Under the pieces are notes generated by a model. The model made no database searches, had not been told where the DNA came from, and saw nothing but the letters and a program-made list of their open reading frames with translations. A program made the translations under genes and the position numbers. DNA of 64,000 bases from Chlorops oryzae (Eukaryota; Arthropoda; Insecta; Diptera; Chloropidae). The stretch is from assembly GCA_020466095.1 (NCBI GenBank), contig CM035808.1, positions 25,499,508 through 25,563,507 of the forward strand, in the 5' to 3' direction. Positions 20,659 to 44,500 of the stretch are shown here, piece after piece (position 1 is the stretch's first letter; every line of letters begins with the position of its first letter).

Positions 20659-21427
20659 ATGATGTGCCAATTAAGTTGCAATTGGCAAACGGCCTTTGAT
20701 GATTTGATGGATTGGTTGGATCTAGACTTGGACGCCGAAACAGACGAAGATAGGTAAGCACTTAGCAATGACACATCAAAAAACGGTTAATTTCAATGCT
20801 TTCAGACTGAAATTGGTGTTCGAGCCTAATGAAAGCGAACAGCCGTTTGCAAGTGATCTCTTCGTACTAGTGGAGGGCGGAGAACATGTTGTTGAGCTGT
20901 TAAAGTTGGTCACTAACAACGAAGACTTCAAGAAATTAGCCACCATTCCCAATACTGAACGTGGACTGGTTGGATGTCCTTGTATATTATTCAAAAATAA
21001 GAAAAGCTTGCTGGCACTTTTGAATACGGACTCAAACTCAAGCGGGGAGGTCAATGAACTTCTGCGTCCTTATGCGGAACTTGCAAAAAATGTTGCAGTG
21101 GTGCATATTAAACCGTTGTTAAGTTACAAGGGTGTGCTACCTTCGAGGACAGTAGCTAATGATGCGACTTTCATAAGAGGCATTAATTCAAAACTGAACT
21201 ATGTTGAAGGATTGCTCCCACCGAATATGATTTCTGGAGCTGGGGCTGGTATTGCATCTTGGAGGACTTACAAGGAACAGCCAGTTTCTAGTTATGTCGT
21301 ATTCACTCATAAGTTTCGTACAATAGAATTAATGAAATTATTGACTGATATTGGTTTGGATGGCTTGAAAAAACCTCTTCAGCCAAAAGATGAAGAATCC
21401 TATATCGAGAAGAGACCTTACATTTAA
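20659..21427 (+). CDS. Proteasome assembly chaperone 1-like protein
   Basis: Two exons, 20659-20753 and 20806-21427, are joined across a 52-bp intron (GTAAGC..TTTCAG), giving 238 aa. The N-terminus is acidic (MMCQLSCNWQTAFDDLMDWL, then LDLDAETDED). The order of features matches PSMG1 (PAC1). A strand segment SDLFVLVEGGEHVVELLKLV corresponds to the FIIAIGNNAVAFL region. KNVAVVHIKPLLSYKG and VLPS come before LLPPNMISGAGAGIASW, and SSYVVFTHKFRTIELMKLL corresponds to the C-terminal LYLCYT..LITVEAF region. PSMG1 pairs with PSMG2 to nucleate the alpha ring of the 20S proteasome. The assignment rests on pattern memory, not a search, so homology is probable rather than certain. An AATAAA lies at 21603-21608. 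Confidence 0.6.
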
Positions 21428-22064: not shown

Positions 22065-22068
22065 ACCA

Positions 22069-22816
22069 TGTTGTGAGTCTCTCCCAAACTCACATGTGGT
22101 CACCTTAAACCGAAAGCAAAAGGCAGTGACCTGCATTTATGAATTTCACTTCAAGGTGATTCCAAGCTACTCAAAAACACTGTCCAGCGTAAAATTGCTG
22201 ACAAATTCAAACATGCAGTTCGGCCGCTGGTAACAACAACAACACTGGCACAGTATATGCCCGATTGACAAACATCAGCGCTGGCGCAGCGAATGCACAA
22301 TAGCAATCCGATCGCTGGCAATAACAACAACAACACACGTCAAGAGTTTTTACGTAAAAGCAACAACAACTACAAAAGAAGAACTAAGAACATCGGAATA
22401 GCTGTATGTAGTAACAACAACAATATGGCATGTTGGTACAATTGCGGGTGAAGGTCGCGGTTAAGCTTATGCAATATGTTCGGGAAGAATCGACGACGAT
22501 CGCGGACCATGGGAATATTCGATATTGCAAGATCAGCAATATTGATCTATATAAACGGAGCTTCGATGACTGGAACGGGACTTCTGCGAGCGTACTCACC
22601 AAAGGGCCACGACGGAGAAGTTAATAGAGTAGTCTTTTAAATAATAACAGAAAACTTGTATTTAATTTGAATTAAATAAAAGGATAATTAATTGAAATCC
22701 TTTGTGTTCCTTTTTATTTGTGTAAAGGACCCCATTATATCCTACGGTGTACTTGCCTGACGTGCGTACCTACCCAAGTGCCACGGCGTTAGGTAATTGC
22801 ACCGTAGGATACAACA
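22069..22816 (+). repeat. 5' LTR
   Basis: 748 bp, TG...CA termini. The centre is rich in CAACAACAA and CAATAACAA runs. AATAAA at 22675-22680 is a plausible polyadenylation signal. Near its end a 12-bp inverted repeat, TATCCTACGGTG (22738-22749) and its complement (22800-22811), frames a 50-nt loop. Confidence 0.95.
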
Positions 22817-22820
22817 TTTA

Positions 22821-22838
22821 TGGCGCAGCCGGTATTCG
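22821..22838 (+). other. Primer binding site (tRNA-Ser type)
   Basis: TGGCGCAGCCGGTATTCG begins four bases after the 5' LTR. TGG followed by CGCAG and CGG is the complement expected for the CCA-tailed 3' end of insect tRNA-Ser, with a mismatch. Confidence 0.7.
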
Positions 22839-22929
22839 ACTGACTTTCAGTTGGATCGAAATCAGTTCTCTAAAAGTTTTTTTAAATTATTGATCGTTGT
22901 GCGGTTTAATTTTTGACGCTATTCAGCTA

Positions 22930-23186
22930 AATTGGGGCTGTGACAGTCTTAAACAGTAATTAGTTATTACCAAACTTGCAGAAAAGCTCGTCAAATTGAA
23001 CTGCATTAGCGACTATAATTTTTAAGCAAAGTTTATATCGACAAGGTTTGCTTGCCAATATAACTGAGCAAAAAGCTTGAAAGAATATTAAAATTTTATA
23101 CCAAAAGTGTACATACATGATCGGCTACGAAATATCGCCTTGAATTGGGGCTGTGACAGTCTTAAACAGTAATTAGTTATTACCAA
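22930..23186 (+). repeat. 44-bp direct repeat in the retrotransposon leader
   Basis: The sequence starting AATTGGGGCTGTGACAGTCT occurs at 22930-22973 and identically at 23143-23186, 213 bp apart, between the primer site and the ORF. It may be part of the RNA packaging leader or the trace of an internal duplication. Confidence 0.85.
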
Positions 23187-23860
23187 GACAAGCCGAATAA
23201 AAATTCGTAAGCAAGATTGTATGGTAAAACGCTTGTAGAATATTTTTATTTTTGAAGAATACCAATGCTTTCAAAATAAATATCCTTATAAAAAGTAAAA
23301 ATAAGTTTTTTGTTAATAAAAAGCTGGAATAATTGGCCGAAACGGAACTGTTTCCAGTTTTAAAAAGTGGCGAAGTCACATACCGAAGAAGCTAAATATT
23401 CTATTGCTATTATTTTTTTTGTAAATTTAAACCATAACGGATTGAATAAGTAATTTCAAATTTTATTTTAATACAAGTTTAAAGTTTAAAATTTGAAAAA
23501 GTTTTTAAGTTTAAAAAGAAAAAGTGAAAACAAGCTTTTTTTAAATAATTGTCAACGGTAGCTGTCCAACGCAGAATAAATAAAACGAAAATGGTAAGTA
23601 CAAAAAACCTTAAATAAAAAATTTTTTTCGCCCAGAGTCCTTTTTGTTACCGATGAATTGCAATATTTTTGTGATATAATATCAAAATAAGAATTGCTCG
23701 GTTATTTGCATATTTTCAGGAAAATGAGTCATTTAGAGAAAAAACGGCATAATAAATTGAGTAAACGGTTTTGTAATCATAGTCAAAATGTAGCCACTTA
23801 GATATCAATTATCTACGCAAATTTATATAGTAGAATTAGTATTGATGGATCAGAAATAAA

Positions 23861-25402
23861 ATGCCATTTTTCAAAAAATCAGAAGGACATAAGACCTTCA
23901 TTGAAGATTTAGATAGGTCCCGAATATATAATAGAATAAAAAATGTAGAAAGTAAAAAGGAAAATTTGTTGAAAATTAAGAAAGATTTTCGGAATTTTGG
24001 AGTCGAAGATGAAATTAATCTAGAGTTTGTAAAAAAAGTAAAGAATATAGAAAGTAAAAAGGAAAATCTGTTGAAACTTATTAAGAAAGATTTTCGGAAT
24101 TTGGGAGTCGAAGATGAAATTAACATAGAGTTTGTAAATAAGGTAAAAAATATTGAGAGTAAAAAAGAAAAGTTATTGAAGTATAAGCCTCCATATAAAA
24201 CAGATGAAAAAGGTTATCTAGTAACTTATTTTCATTCTCACAATATGTTATTATTTAATGAGAAAAATGAAGAAAAGGGGCAAGACAGAGAAAGCATCAT
24301 ATCTCTTTGCCAGGTAGATAATAAAAAAGAACCAGCTAAAGAAGGCAAAAGGATTGAAACTTTGATGAATAAAAACGAAGATATACTAAAATTTTTATTT
24401 TTATCGATATCTTTTGTGTTATTCATTTTAACTTTTTTAATCGAAAAAGTCATAGTAAGCTGTGTTTGGGCTTATATAATCTGGGATGAACATAAAAAAC
24501 AAATTAATAGAAAAAAAGTCAGTAACTATAATGAATCTGCACTTAAAATTGAAGGTTCACAATCAGTGTCCGACGACATATTTGTAGTATTTTCTCGTGG
24601 ACAAGCTATAAATGATAGGGTTGCCTTGTTAGTGGACACTGGGCCGGATAAAAGTTTGATGAAGTCAGATGTATTGAAAATAGGAACTGATTCAGGAAAA
24701 AGCAGATTTGGAGAAAATATAGACATTCAGAAAAACGTAGAGCTTGTGCATTCAGAGCTAAGTCAATCAGAGTCACTTCAACTCGTCGTTCCCAACATCG
24801 ATAAGATTTGTATTGCAGAGGCAGTTACGATAAAAGCGAGGGAAGCGAAAGTGGCACCGATTTTCGAGAAAATAGTGTTGGACGATAAGGAAATTGAGAA
24901 AAAAGAAATTAATGATAAAAAGGGACTATCTAGCGGTGGGGATGCTGTGATTAAAATGTCGAATGTATTGGAGTACGAGTTCGACGAGGAGTTCGAGGAT
25001 AATTTTTGTGGTAAAAATAGTAATGAAGAAATTGAATTCGGCAAGGAGGTCGAGAATAATTCTTGTGGTACTAGAAGAGATGGTACTAATGGTAATAAAG
25101 AAGTAATTGAAGATATTTTGAAAGAAAATCCACCAGATAGAGATAGAAATCCCCATGAGAAGGTATCAGTTAAAAATGTAAACCTAAATGAAGAGTCAGA
25201 GGTTAGAGAGCTGACGCTGTACGAGTATTTCAAAAGTCCGAATGTAATGCAAATATCAATTCAAAAGTTTTTCTCCATTGTAAAAGAATCTGTTCTCATA
25301 CAAAGCAAATCTAAATTAAAATTCTTTCAAATTCAGATAAAACATAGAAGAGAATCAAAAGATCTAGACAAATTTTTCGCCCATAACTATAATGTGCCGT
25401 AG
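23861..25402 (+). CDS. 513-aa retrotransposon protein: repeats, membrane segment, DTG motif
   Basis: This is the only long frame of the LTR element. Residues 27-106 hold two full copies and one partial copy of a charged repeat of about 34 aa built on ESKKENLLK..KKDFRN.GVEDEIN. Residues 177-207 (FLFLSISFVLFILTFLIEKV, then IVSCVWAYII) form one or two hydrophobic membrane-like segments. RVALLVDTGPDKSLMKSDVL at 253-272 has the hydrophobic-hydrophobic-Asp-Thr-Gly pattern of a retropepsin active site. The rest (275-513) is acidic and Ser/Glu/Lys-rich without a zinc knuckle or recognisable capsid. I do not recognise the protein as a whole. It could be a decayed, fused Gag-protease or a novel accessory protein. 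The open frame in such a young element suggests selection or very recent origin. Confidence 0.7.
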   Translation: MPFFKKSEGHKTFIEDLDRSRIYNRIKNVESKKENLLKIKKDFRNFGVEDEINLEFVKKVKNIESKKENLLKLIKKDFRNLGVEDEINIEFVNKVKNIESKKEKLLKYKPPYKTDEKGYLVTYFHSHNMLLFNEKNEEKGQDRESIISLCQVDNKKEPAKEGKRIETLMNKNEDILKFLFLSISFVLFILTFLIEKVIVSCVWAYIIWDEHKKQINRKKVSNYNESALKIEGSQSVSDDIFVVFSRGQAINDRVALLVDTGPDKSLMKSDVLKIGTDSGKSRFGENIDIQKNVELVHSELSQSESLQLVVPNIDKICIAEAVTIKAREAKVAPIFEKIVLDDKEIEKKEINDKKGLSSGGDAVIKMSNVLEYEFDEEFEDNFCGKNSNEEIEFGKEVENNSCGTRRDGTNGNKEVIEDILKENPPDRDRNPHEKVSVKNVNLNEESEVRELTLYEYFKSPNVMQISIQKFFSIVKESVLIQSKSKLKFFQIQIKHRRESKDLDKFFAHNYNVP

Positions 25403-26198
25403 CTTTATTAAAAATTCAAAATACTGTCCCAAAACATAGGTTCATCTCGACTAAAACGAGAGCTGACTGTTTTTATATCTAATCATTACTGTCACAAAAA
25501 ATTTCTTTTTAATATCGCTTGCTGCGATGTCTAAATAAGGAATGACAACGAAAAATAAAAATATAATTCAAATAAATTCCGTTACAAATAGAAAAAAAAA
25601 AAAAAAAACATTTTTTTTGAAACATTGCGGTTATACGAATTTTCAAGTTTTGTAACATCTATTTTGTCTCATATTGTAAATGCAGACGTTTCACCTCTCC
25701 GAGTGAAGAATTTCACGACGTTGAAATAAGCAGGAGGGACTCAGGGCAAATAATGTCTACTTTTATTATCTTTCAAGGTAAACCAACGAGAAGGACCGGA
25801 AGAATTTAAGAGAGAAAAAAGGAGATATAATAAGTTGGTAAATATAAAAAAAACACATTTATACAAATATTTGCAAAATATTGGTATATATGTATGTACA
25901 TATATCAAGAGACATCTAATTCAAAATAATACCTTGAAAGCATAGGTATTTTTGCGCTTATAACTAAGTTTGAATGAAAGAAAAATGTATATATATATAT
26001 ATAATATATATTCAAATACAAATTATATATATATATATTGAAATAAAAAAAAAAAAGAGTAAATAGAAAGAATATGGTAGAATAGAAGTATTTTAAAACC
26101 ATTCACCGAATAAAAGAGAATGTTAAAACACAAAATTATTAAGAAAAAGAAAATCAAATTATATATGTAAAATGGAAAACAAAATAAGATAAAGAACA

Positions 26199-26232
<34 letters not shown>

Positions 26233-27233
26233 TATAAAATAAATAAATAAAAATTTCGAGAAAAGGTAAATTACAAATTTTTATCAATTTTTAATTACGG
26301 TGACGGGTACATCATAAGAAAACAATATATGTATTGTTAATTGTGAAATCAAACGGTAGAAAAAAAAATTATATTCACAGACAAAAACCTCAAAGTATAG
26401 GTACCTTACAAAACTTTTGTTTTTGAAACTCTTATAAACAAAGTACAATTTTAGAAAAATAATGAAAAAAAAAAGGAATTATAAAAGAAAATATGAATTT
26501 GCAAACGATAAAACATAAGTGGTAAAATAAAAAAAAAAATAAACAATAAATAAATTATACATGATTGTTAAACAAGCTGCAAGAAAATCAATTCAAAACA
26601 TTATATAGATAATAAGAAAATATACTACGAAATAAATTTTATATTAGATTTAAGCCCAACGAATGGTCTGGATACGCACTATCGAAACAGCGGGAGTATC
26701 GTTTAAACAACAGAAGTAGTATACATCGAACACGCATCAACATAAATCTCACGATTCATCATTTGCCTCTAAACAACGTCTTCGCCAGCATTAGGCAAAC
26801 ATCTACATTTCTTATCAACCATCACCGTAAACGTAAACGTTTCAACATTGTCACCTTAAAATCATGAAGCAACCCAGCAACAGTAACGATGCATACTGTA
26901 TACATCATATGTTAACATTTTCGTTCATCTAAATCATCAGCAACTAATACGCGACTTCTTTAAGAAGGGGAGGGAGTGAGTCAAGGTTGTCCCTAAATTA
27001 AAACCTCTGAACAACCTGCCAGCATTATTTTTCTTTAAACAACGTCTATGTGGTCACAACATCAGCAGCTCGTTTCAGCACAAGAAAGTTAGAGTAAACA
27101 TCGCAGCAAACACTCTCATCTTCCAAGTACGGGATACGTCAACTGAATGTTAATTTAAAACCGCAGCAGCCGCAATGTCAAAAGCGCATCCAATTCTGGG
27201 GTTTTCGATCATCGCTATGGAGCGATTTTCTTC
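25403..27233 (+). other. Non-coding 3' interior of the LTR element
   Basis: About 1.8 kb, very AT-rich from 25560 to 26640 with A and TA runs (26199-26238). From 26650 to 27233 it has more balanced base composition but no ORF. A second purine run, AAGAAGGGGAGGGAGTGAG (26960-26978), resembles the true polypurine tract. Polymerase genes would be expected here in an autonomous relative; none is present. Confidence 0.7.
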
Positions 27234-27246
27234 AAAGGGGGAGGGA
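27234..27246 (+). other. Polypurine tract
   Basis: AAAGGGGGAGGGA lies directly before the 3' LTR; it is the expected plus-strand primer. Confidence 0.88.
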
Positions 27247-27994
27247 TGTTGTGAGTCTCTCCCAAACTCACATGTGGTCACCTTAAACCGAAAGCAAAAG
27301 GCAGTGACCTGCATTTATGAATTTCACTTCAAGGTGATTCCAAGCTACTCAAAAACACTGTCCAGCGTAAAATTGCTGACAAATTCAAACATGCAGTTCG
27401 GCCGCTGGTAACAACAACAACACTGGCACAGTATATGCCCGATTGACAAACATCAGCGCTGGCGCAGCGAATGCACAATAGCAATCCGATCGCTGGCAAT
27501 AACAACAACAACACACGTCAAGAGTTTTTACGTAAAAGCAACAACAACTACAAAAGAAGAACTAAGAACATCGGAATAGCTGTATGTAGTAACAACAACA
27601 ATATGGCATGTTGGTACAATTGCGGGTGAAGGTCGCGGTTAAGCTTATGCAATATGTTCGGGAAGAATCGACGACGATCGCGGACCATGGGAATATTCGA
27701 TATTGCAAGATCAGCAATATTGATCTATATAAACGGAGCTTCGATGACTGGAACGGGACTTCTGCGAGCGTACTCACCAAAGGGCCACGACGGAGAAGTT
27801 AATAGAGTAGTCTTTTAAATAATAACAGAAAACTTGTATTTAATTTGAATTAAATAAAAGGATAATTAATTGAAATCCTTTGTGTTCCTTTTTATTTGTG
27901 TAAAGGACCCCATTATATCCTACGGTGTACTTGCCTGACGTGCGTACCTACCCAAGTGCCACGGCGTTAGGTAATTGCACCGTAGGATACAACA
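27247..27994 (+). repeat. 3' LTR
   Basis: 748 bp, indistinguishable from the 5' LTR in every part compared, including the three small frames and the end hairpin. It is followed by the ACCA target duplication. Confidence 0.95.
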
Positions 27995-28018
27995 ACCATT
28001 GGAGTTATCGATGGTTCT

Positions 28019-28256
28019 ATGTATCGATTGTTGGATTAATCGATTAGTCGAATAATCGATTATTCCAATAATAATAAATAAAATTAAAATAAAATTATTG
28101 GAATAATCGATTAGTCAAATAATCGATTATTGGAATAATCGATTAGTCAAATAATCGATTATTGGAATAATGGATTATTTGAATTATTGATTATTGAAGT
28201 TATCTTTCATTAGAATTCTCGATTATTAAAATTATCGATTATTAAAATAATCGATC
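28019..28256. repeat. ATCGATTATT-type palindromic tandem repeat
   Basis: Irregular repeats of AATAATCGATTAGTCAAAT and AATCGATTATTGG make a local satellite. Similar but fewer motifs lie left of the LTR element (21745-21832), so the retrotransposon may have landed in a pre-existing array. Confidence 0.75.
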
Positions 28257-41500: not shown

Positions 41501-44500
41501 CGGAAGGTAAACGACGAAAGAAACCTGCAGATTATGGGCAAATGGCTTGAAAAGAAACTGTGCAAGCAAAGGTGCTAACCAGAAAAGAAAGACTATTTGA
41601 TTATCGAATTCGTTAAAGTAGAAAAAAAGAAAATGTCCAATGAGAGAATTATTTAATTGCTATGATAATGTTCAATAATAGCAAAGACTCTCGATGGATT
41701 TTTAAATGAATAACAATTTAGAAAAATATAATCAATTCTTGATGAGTTGAAAGTCATTGGAAAGTCATACAAAGTAATAATTGACTTAAATGGTTTTTTC
41801 TTAACCACACATAAATAAAAAGTGATCTAAAGCTTTGTAATTAAAGTGATGATTGACGCGGCTTAATGACAGATGTAATTAAGCGTTGTGACGTAAATTA
41901 GTGGGCTGTCATTTTGTTAACAGTTTTTCAGCAATGAAGTAATCGAGCAGGAAATATAAGGCTTTATAGAGAGGGGAAAGGGATTGGAACAATTACCAAA
42001 ATTACCAAAAACTAATTGAGCTCCATTTTGTTTTTTTTTTATAATTATCTCAATTGTTATCGTTTTTGCTCAATAAATCCTAATTTTTAATTTTTTGTTT
42101 TTAAAGTTTAGATTATTATAAGTAATCGAAATATAATCGGGACAATTTTTTGAATTATTGTTTTTCATCAATTAGATTAGTTTATTAATGTGAAAAAGTT
42201 CCGATTATTAACCTATCACTTGACCAATTTTAATAATTAATTTTGAGGCACATATGTACTTATATGAAATCTTTATTCATAAATAATTTTTGATCCTGAA
42301 AGAAACAAGTCACTTGATTTATTAATTACTAGAAATATATATAAATGCAGAAAAATATATATAAATATTTGAAGAGCACGAATGGTAGATTTTTCCTGGT
42401 TCTGGTACATTTTTTGATGCAAGAAAATTAAGTCACCTTATCTTTCCTTTTCTATCTTTGCCTTTCTTTGCCTGTCTTTCCCATTATTTCCTTCTCTTTC
42501 CTTCTCTTTCCTTCTCTTTCCTTCTCTTTCCTTCTCTTTCCTTCTCTTTTTCCTTCTCTTTCCTTCTCTTTCCTTCTCTTTCCTTCTCTTTCCTTCTCTT
42601 TCCTTCTCTTTTTCCTTCTCTTTCCTTCTCTTTCCTTCTCTTTCCTTCTCTTTCCTTCTCTTTTTTTCCTTCTCTTTCCTTCTCTTTCCTTCTCTTTCCT
42701 TCTCTTTCCTTCTCTTTCCTTCTCTTTCCTTCTCTTTCCTTCTCTTTCCTTCTCTTTCCTTCTCTTTCCTTCTCTTTCCTTCTCTTTCCTTCTCTTTCCT
42801 TCTCTTTCCTTCTCTTTCCTTCTCTTTCCTTCTCTTTCCTTCTCTTTCCTTCTCTTTCCTTCTCTTTCCTTCTCTTTCCTTCTTTCCTTCTCTTCCTTCC
42901 TCTTTCCTTCTCTTTCCTTCTCTTTCCTTCTCTTTTCCTTCTCTTTCCTTCTCTTTCCTTCTCTTTCCTTCTCTTTCCTTCTCTTTCCTTCTCTTTCGTT
43001 CTCTTTCCTTCTTTTCGTTCTCTTTCCTTCTCTTTCCTTCTCTTTCTTTCTCTTTCCCTCTCTTTCGTTCATCTTCCCTCTCTTAACGTTTGCAATGTAA
43101 TCCCAAAAAATTTGTTTTTCTTCGACTATCTCTCACTAAAAAAAACTCCATGAAAATCCCTTGCATAGTTCTAAAGATCGCAGCATACAGACAAACAGAC
43201 ACAGCGGGACGACTTTGTCTTAAACTATGTAATGATAATGATTTATTAAATAGTGATAAATAAATAAAAAAATGCTTCGTAGAATTAATAGACTTGAGAA
43301 TTTGAAAAGCAATACTCACGAGCAAAATTTCTTGCCTTTCAGCTGCCCCTAAAACGACTGATCAATCCCTGCCTCAAAACTACTACAACAGTTTTGTCAA
43401 TGGTACCGACTTGTTGCGCGCTATAAGGCTATCTATAGATGAACACGAGCTCCGGCGCCAGCGGCACAAGCAACCAAGGTTCGTATAAGAAAATTTCTCC
43501 AAGCAGAATGTAATTGAAAATCCTCTTTTCAGATCTAAACGAGCAGTCAAACGCGTCTGTTATGGCGAACTGGGCTGCTTCGAGGACTCAGGTCCTTTTG
43601 CGTACTTGGAAATGCTGCCGTCAGCTCCCGAAGAGATCAATACGAAATTTTATTTCTATTCAACGCGAAATAGATCAGATCGTCCACTCATGGAATTGCC
43701 CTTCATGAATATGACTTCGGAGTTTGAGAAGTTCGTATCTTCTCGCACAAGAAAGCGCAGCGCTGGAGGCGATATCTCAACGACCAGCTCATCCGAGACC
43801 ACAATGCCAACATCGAGCACAAGAGGACGCAGTTTCAGACGGTCTGTAGTTACACTCGAAAACTTAGAAGGCTTCAATGAGCTTTCTGTTCGGGTGATTG
43901 TTCACGGCTTCGGTTCCGCTTGCCCGCACGTATGGATCTATGAAATGAAGACTGCACTGATGGCTGTGGTGAGTTTGCCGAGTGGCCTCAATGCTCTGGG
44001 AGATTGATTTGAATATTTGTTATGTCGATTTACAGGAAGACTGCATTGTCATCTGCGTGGACTGGGAGAACGGAGCGACTTTTCCGAATTATGTTCGTGC
44101 AGCAGCGAACACGCGACTTGTCGGAAAACAGTTGGCAATGTTGCTGAATAATCTTCAGGAGCATAAAGGCCTCAATTTAACGCGCACCCATTTGATTGGC
44201 TTTAGTCTTGGGGCACATGTTTCTGGCTTCGCGGGAGCCGAGCTGCCCGGCTTGTCGCGCATAACCGGACTTGATCCGGCAGGGCCACTGTTCGAGGCAC
44301 AGCATCCAAAAGTTCGTCTTGATAGTACCGATGCTGAGTTTGTTGACGTCATACATTCGAATGGTGAGAATCTGATACTGGGCGGTCTGGGCTCATGGCA
44401 GCCCATGGGTGATGTGGACTTCTATCCGAATGGTGGACGTGTACAGACCGGTTGTTCGAACTTGTTTGTTGGTGCCGTTACCGATTTCATTTGGTGTAAG

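What the first reader, a model, noticed from the sequence alone, without database searches (positions are those of the whole stretch)
22069..27994. Very young LTR retrotransposon with no polymerase genes
LTRs (748 bp each) appear identical, the ACCA duplication and polypurine tract are perfect, yet there is no reverse transcriptase, RNase H or integrase. It has therefore moved recently using proteins made elsewhere. It seems to be a distinct, active non-autonomous family rather than a dead fragment.
Basis: partly seen in the sequence, partly recalled or inferred. Interest (0 to 1): 0.75.

Follow-up and report, generated by a model that had tools for sequence, protein, structure and literature searches.

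The report
Parasitic retrotransposon keeping a Pol-derived gene
A recently inserted jumping gene without copying machinery of its own still carries one intact gene descended from a piece of that machinery, and it probably moves with proteins from a larger relative whose own machinery is fused to a cell-signalling enzyme.

Summary
Window 22069-27994 is a 5,926-bp LTR element with identical 748-bp LTRs, an ACCA duplication, a tRNA-Ser-type primer site and a polypurine tract. It has no Gag, RT, RNase H or integrase. Related copies of the repeat it landed in run through the insertion point, so it is a real insertion. It belongs to a multi-copy young family: both LTRs were resolved in 12 copies (11 like the window, 1 Gag-bearing), 10 with matching 4-bp duplications.

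One correction: it is not empty. It carries a 513-aa ORF ('X'), open in 14 of 16 copies, dN/dS about 0.5, with no stops where about 9.5 are expected. X descends from the start of Pol (pre-protease, a gutted protease, linker).

Candidate helper: an 11.4-kb Ty3/gypsy-type family sharing most of the LTR (93.6%), the first ~500 nt of leader (~97%), primer site and polypurine tract. Its Pol ends, in frame, in a complete protein tyrosine phosphatase. A Gag+X type also exists in many young copies. This suggests a three-level helper/parasite system. Mobilisation in trans and the role of X are inferred, and no fully intact helper copy was shown. The phosphatase is the most surprising part; my literature searches found no report of one.

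The parts
22065..22068 (.). Target-site duplication ACCA, left copy
   Evidence: sequence
22069..22816 (+). 5' LTR, 748 bp, TGTTGTGA...TACAACA
   Evidence: identical to the 3' LTR
22821..22834 (+). Primer-binding site, first 14 nt complementary to tRNA-Ser 3' end plus CCA
   Evidence: match read by eye
22817..23320 (+). Leader stretch shared with gag-bearing relatives, including the gag-pol-type copies (94-98%)
   Evidence: (query 1-504)
23591..23599 (+). Candidate splice donor ATG|GTAAGT; role inferred
   Evidence: present in the window and 11 of 15 other loci scanned; a similar ATG...GTGAGT in L028, L029 and L030
23861..25402 (+). ORF X, 513 aa, derived from the N-terminal part of Pol
   Evidence: open in 14 of 16 copies, dN/dS about 0.5; homology to partner Pol
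23937..24180 (+). In-frame repeats of about 105 nt inside X
   Evidence: copy number differs by one unit in L016 and others
24374..24484 (+). Hydrophobic helix of X (aa 172-208)
   Evidence: hydropathy; the best-predicted part of an otherwise poor model
24635..24643 (+). Remnant protease motif Asp-Thr-Gly in X
   Evidence: aligned to the partner's DTG; DNG in L020, L021 and L022, DIG in L026
27234..27246 (+). Polypurine tract AAAGGGGGAGGGA
   Evidence: sequence; same type in the partner
27247..27994 (+). 3' LTR, 748 bp
27995..27998 (.). Target-site duplication ACCA, right copy
   Evidence: sequence

Best explanation
A recently inserted copy of a non-autonomous LTR retrotransposon family that depends on a related gag-pol family in the same genome. 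Shown: a multi-copy family, young insertions with TSDs, LTR/leader/primer site/polypurine tract shared with the gag-pol family, and a conserved ORF X of Pol origin. Inferred: its RNA is packaged through the shared LTR and leader into particles of Gag from gag-bearing relatives, primed by tRNA-Ser, copied by the partner's RT/RNase H and inserted by the partner's integrase. X no longer has protease architecture; most likely it acts without enzyme activity, binding or competing in Gag or Gag-Pol assembly through its helical repeats and hydrophobic helix. Recombination between co-packaged RNAs probably keeps LTR and leader matched to the partner while X diverges.
For: LTR identity and TSDs at many loci. 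Uninterrupted related sites. Partner L030/L034 with 4-bp TSD and 99.64% identical LTRs; RT, RNase H, integrase in one open ORF; 10 of 40 scored RT rows 99-100% identical. Shared LTR 45-559 (93.6%) and leader (96.9%). A phosphatase-bearing copy on C529 whose 3' LTR matches window LTR position 45 to the end at 95.7%. X: no stops vs 9.5 expected, gaps of 9, 105 and 3 nt, dN/dS about 0.5; homology to Pol E 4e-12.
Against: Movement in trans was not observed. No fully intact helper was shown: gag of L030 is split over two frames and Pol of L028 is broken. L030 differs from the window in the first ~44 and last ~190 nt of the LTR. Total divergence of X is not below that of the DNA just downstream (11.1 vs 9.4% for L020, 3.3 vs 1.1% for L017, 6.8 vs 9.4% for L031). 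The deficit of amino-acid changes under a fixed substitution spectrum is modest (p 0.0135).
Confidence: 0.8

Rival explanations
1. A simple, recent internal-deletion derivative of the gag-pol family; X is a passive remnant without function.
For: X is homologous to the partner's Pol N-terminus; ends are nearly those of the partner; divergence of X is not below that of the downstream DNA.
Against: X is only about 40% identical to the partner's Pol over the aligned part while LTR and leader are 94-97% identical; X stays open in 14 of 16 copies and between groups 12% apart, with no stops against 9.5 expected and gaps in multiples of three.
Confidence: 0.12
2. X is kept for a cis reason (open translation protects the RNA or shapes its fate), not for the protein.
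For: Low amino-acid constraint for an enzyme (dN/dS about 0.5); DTG not kept in all copies; nine upstream ATGs in the leader.
Against: Fewer amino-acid changes than expected in 2,000 spectrum-matched trials (p 0.0135).
Confidence: 0.25
3. The phosphatase in the partner is a one-off transduced host fragment with no role in the element.
For: 13 of 40 RT rows have no phosphatase row nearby among the scored rows; 4 diverged copies compared are decayed.
Against: 27 of 40 RT rows have it downstream on the same strand; 21 full-length rows at 98% or more; same order of domains in the metagenome protein P0121; dN/dS 0.38-0.74 in the diverged copies.
Confidence: 0.2
4. Assembly artefact joining two LTRs.
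For: None found.
Against: Matching TSD; uninterrupted related sites; the same layout at other loci with other TSDs.
Confidence: 0.01

Closest known systems
LARDs (large retrotransposon derivatives; definition recalled, papers seen as listing only)
   Same: Several-kb non-autonomous LTR elements with kept ends and no enzymes
   Different: LARDs are described as non-coding inside; this family keeps an open, constrained ORF
TR-GAG elements (PMC8704663, passages)
   Same: Non-autonomous LTR elements that keep one ORF and have a related autonomous element; one was seen to transpose in Arabidopsis. The middle tier here (L029) keeps a Gag ORF
   Different: The window type keeps a Pol-derived ORF instead of Gag; L029 carries Gag plus X
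rooA of Drosophila (PMC3087523, passages)
   Same: Young short fly LTR copies for which the authors invoke spreading by intact helper elements
   Different: Many rooA copies are about 25% of full length and some carry stops; no separate conserved ORF in the passages seen
Non-autonomous pararetroviruses of grasses (PMC5491270, abstract)
   Same: Defective members share regulatory sequences with partners, kept alike by recombination
   Different: Plant pararetroviruses; here an LTR element family in an animal-type genome (host not identified)
Orchid Ty3/gypsy elements with an RNA demethylase domain (PMC9289625, abstract and passages)
   Same: LTR element family with an extra host-type enzyme domain kept over many copies, as in the partner
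   Different: Demethylase in an additional ORF; here a protein tyrosine phosphatase in frame at the end of Pol

Membership tests
LTR retrotransposon | Direct LTRs with TG...CA ends, TSD, primer site, polypurine tract | tested here: met
Non-autonomous LTR retrotransposon family | No RT/integrase, yet multiple young copies with TSDs | tested here: met
Non-autonomous LTR retrotransposon family | Moved in trans by a named partner | not testable with these tools
   shared ends only
LARD | Internal region without conserved coding sequence (recalled definition) | tested here: not met
   ORF X
TR-GAG | Single ORF coding for Gag | tested here: not met
   X has no Gag match; it is Pol-derived
TRIM | Miniature size (recalled: usually under about 1 kb) | tested here: not met
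   5,926 bp
Ty3/gypsy (partner L030) | Domain order PR-RT-RNase H-IN in Pol | tested here: met
   (protease match 20.6 bits, just under Pfam's 20.7 cut-off in L030; above it in L028)
Ty3/gypsy (partner L030) | Placement in an RT tree with named gypsy clades | not tested
   no named reference set was at hand
Working retropepsin (ORF X) | Catalytic motif and complete protease domain | tested here: not met
   DNG in three copies, DIG in one; large gap over the rest of the domain
Classical protein tyrosine phosphatase (partner) | PF00102 domain with HC(X)5R and WPD motifs (motifs recalled) | tested here: met

The most novel reading that the evidence does not exclude
A three-level parasitic system in one genome: a Ty3/gypsy-type element whose Pol ends in a functional host-type protein tyrosine phosphatase; a Gag+X element that uses the same -1 frameshift heptamer to make Gag-X in place of Gag-Pol; and X-only elements such as the window's, in which the ex-protease region has become an accessory protein that helps them compete for the helper's particles.
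Probability: 0.33. Interest if true: 0.8.

Novelty: new variant of a known kind. Interest (0 to 1): 0.56.

Why it matters
Described non-autonomous LTR elements are mostly empty or keep Gag. A young family that keeps a Pol-derived ORF under measurable constraint, next to a Gag+X type and a gag-pol type in one genome, makes it testable what a defective element gains by coding for a protein. The partner's in-frame phosphatase raises a second question: why a retrotransposon would carry a signalling enzyme into its polyprotein.

Tried and rejected
Pfam and PDB with X gave nothing significant; the best Pfam row, Otopetrin, E 0.015 and below its cut-off, is taken as chance from the hydrophobic helix. 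Protein search with X: 7,999 candidates scored, none at E 0.001 or better. AlphaFold of X alone: mean pLDDT 36, only the hydrophobic helix at 70-83; no fold search was run on it. The phosphatase tree (37 rows) does not resolve whether L030 and P0121 go back to one capture. IMG/VR scan with integrase end + phosphatase: 11 stretches matched a pattern, none a relative. Achilles of the olive fly is BEL/Pao with a tRNA-Tyr primer site (abstract and passages), so not this element. Literature for a phosphatase inside an LTR element: searches (1 paper; 9 listed; 15 of 41 listed; 0; 12 of 216 listed) showed none; of these I read only passages or abstracts of PMC5704228, PMC4580426, PMC9289625, PMC3087523 and PMC7264820. 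The host species was not identified.

Full report
OBSERVATION. The element lies at exactly 22069-27994. The LTRs are 748 bp with no difference, flanked by ACCA. Zero differences in 748 sites bound the LTR distance to about 0.4% (95%, Poisson, by hand); with recalled fly rates of 2.8-5.8e-9 per site and generation that is under roughly 0.35-0.7 million generations. 'Young' is right; 'yesterday' is not shown. The primer site starts 4 nt after the LTR, and by eye its first 14 nt complement the 3' end of tRNA-Ser(CGA): the 22-nt tail occurs at 5 places in the genome, and the three fetched are tRNA-Ser(CGA) genes. The joined flanks match other copies of a surrounding dispersed repeat; 8 of 44 rows, 77-81% identical, run through the junction without the element. 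No row is near 100%, so no empty allele was found in this assembly.

FAMILY. The LTR finds 42 rows (40 of 1,126 candidates scored). I fetched 20 stretches. Of 21 sequences scanned (window + 20), both LTRs were resolved by script in 12: window, L013-L019, L021, L023, L025 and L029; L029 is Gag-bearing. LTR mismatches: 0 (window, L013, L019), 1 (L015, L016), 2 (L018, L021), 3 (L017, plus 5 gaps), 4 (L025), 5 (L029), 6 (L023), 40 (L014, plus 7 gaps). TSDs match in 10 of 12 (not L021, L025). Nine were not resolved by the script; of these L020 shows 99.87% LTRs and AAAC on both sides. Of 33 LTR rows on C1-C3, 31 lie at C1 65-120, C2 56-66 and C3 65-94 Mb; the other two are the window's own pair at C3 25.5 Mb. 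With X as probe, 21 of 40 scored rows are 92% or more identical and 19 are 88% (770 candidates). The 88% rows I read (L020, L021, L022) have other LTRs and are nearly identical to each other in X. They are a second X-only group.

ORF X. 23861-25402 codes for 513 aa. The window and 15 fetched loci hold this region (L024 and L029, with Gag, not counted); 14 of 16 have it open to the FAHNYNVP end. L019 is shifted near its end and L023 is broken in the first part. Window against L020: 174 differences in 1,431 sites, dS 0.218, dN 0.114, ratio 0.52. Eleven pairs were compared: ten gave 0.27-0.57, and one with five changes gave 0.95. Placing the same substitutions at random gives 9.5 stops on average and never none in 2,000 trials. 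The alignment gaps are 9, 105 and 3 nt, while the ~555 nt downstream has gap runs of 1, 1, 2, 15, 4, 1, 3, 8 and 1 nt (the 56-nt gap listed there for the ORF lies at my cut within the repeats). Against this reading: total divergence of the ORF is not below that of the downstream DNA (11.1 vs 9.4% for L020, 3.3 vs 1.1% for L017, 6.8 vs 9.4% for L031), and the deficit of amino-acid changes is modest under a fixed spectrum (70.1% vs 76.7%, p 0.0135). I read X as a protein under weak to moderate constraint.

ORIGIN OF X. Profile comparison aligns X 171-353 with partner Pol 127-362 (probability 97.6, E 4e-12); BLAST gives 40% over 117 aa, E 1e-10, with low-complexity filter and composition adjustment. 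Aligned are a hydrophobic helix, the start of the protease with DTG and, after a long gap over the rest of the protease, the linker before RT. L020, L021 and L022 read DNG and L026 reads DIG. So X cannot be a working protease by this anatomy. In-frame repeats of about 35 aa vary by one unit.

PARTNER AND TIERS. L030 with L034 (C1:80001774-80013136, about 11.36 kb) has 838-bp LTRs (99.64% identical over the BLAST match), TGTT on both sides, Gag-type ORFs with a zinc knuckle, and a 1,583-aa Pol ORF with protease, RT, RNase H and integrase. In L030 gag is split over two frames, and in L028 Pol is broken, so 'autonomous' is inferred for the family and not shown for a copy. Of 40 scored RT rows (772 candidates), 10 are 99-100% identical. 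L030 matches the window in LTR 45-559 (93.6%), the first ~510 nt of leader (96.9%), the primer site and the polypurine tract. It differs in the first ~44 and last ~190 nt of the LTR; a phosphatase-bearing copy on C529 matches the window LTR from 45 to its end, plus the first 18 nt after it, at 95.7%. A middle type, L029 (TSD TTAG), has an open Gag-like ORF that lacks about the first 235 aa of the partner's Gag, and an X-like ORF without DTG in the -1 frame; a 405-bp probe from its X start finds 24 of 40 scored rows at 98% or more (530 candidates), though Gag was not checked in those rows. L030 and L029 have GGGAAAC in register with both frames at the overlap, the X XXY YYZ form of a -1 slippery site (recalled rule). 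In L024 the gag side and in L028 the pol side is out of register.

PHOSPHATASE. Pol of L030 ends in a complete PF00102 domain (aa 1339-1571, E 4.6e-71) with HCSAGVGRTG and WPD (meaning of the motifs recalled). Of 46 rows (40 of 230 candidates scored) 21 are full length at 98% or more. 27 of 40 RT rows have a phosphatase row downstream on the same strand, 25 of them 2.1-2.6 kb on; 13 have none among the scored rows, which does not prove absence. Six copies were compared with L030: L028 (178 codons) and L035 have no stops; L039-L042 have 1-6 stops and indels, dN/dS 0.38-0.74. In a search with Pol 1120-1583, 1 of the 120 listed proteins also carries RT and integrase: P0121, 1,622 aa, an unnamed metagenome protein, 43% identical over 97% of the query, with the same domain order. 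In P0121 the WPD motif reads WKD. With the phosphatase alone, the best named insect-associated match is Cotesia vestalis bracovirus PTP, 36%. The tree does not resolve where it came from.

HOW IT WORKS (inferred). Gag, RT and integrase from gag-pol (and Gag perhaps from Gag+X) relatives act on the shared ends. Recombination between packaged RNAs would explain why the ends are 94-97% identical while X is about 40% identical to Pol. A splice-donor-like ATG|GTAAGT is kept in the window and 11 of 15 loci scanned, and nine ATGs precede X, so X may be made from a spliced RNA. Role of X: best guess is assembly or competition.

CHANGES ON CHECKING. I lowered confidence in the main reading from 0.82 to 0.80, and the novel case from 0.35 to 0.33, because no intact helper copy was shown.

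Noticed in passing
L030:7500-8252 (G000:C1:80008999-80009751): Complete protein tyrosine phosphatase domain in frame at the end of the partner's Pol; 21 full-length genomic rows at 98% or more; same domain order in metagenome protein P0121.
   Followed up: partly
L029:2145-4348: Gag-like ORF plus X-like ORF with GGGAAAC in register with both frames at their overlap: a middle, Gag+X tier; a probe from it finds 24 of 40 scored rows at 98% or more.
   Followed up: partly
L020, L021, L022, L031: Second group of X-bearing copies with other LTRs; 19 scored rows at 88% to the window's X. DTG has become DNG in L020, L021 and L022 but not in L031.
   Followed up: partly
window 23591-23599: Splice-donor-like ATG|GTAAGT kept in the window and 11 of 15 loci scanned; a TTTTCAG lies about 125 nt downstream in the window.
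   Followed up: partly
window 20726-21427: 233-aa ORF without Pfam match on the same strand, ending about 640 bp upstream of the insertion; it may be part of a host gene.
   Followed up: no
window 42487-43084: (TTTCCTTCTC)n array of about 59 units that is open in several frames on both strands.
   Followed up: no
window 28023-28255: Array of 16/32-bp ATCGATTATTGGAATA-type units just right of the insertion; the site lies in a dispersed repeat with many copies in the genome.
   Followed up: partly
L028:8231-9153: Array of direct repeats of about 127 bp right after a truncated phosphatase in one gag-pol copy.
   Followed up: no
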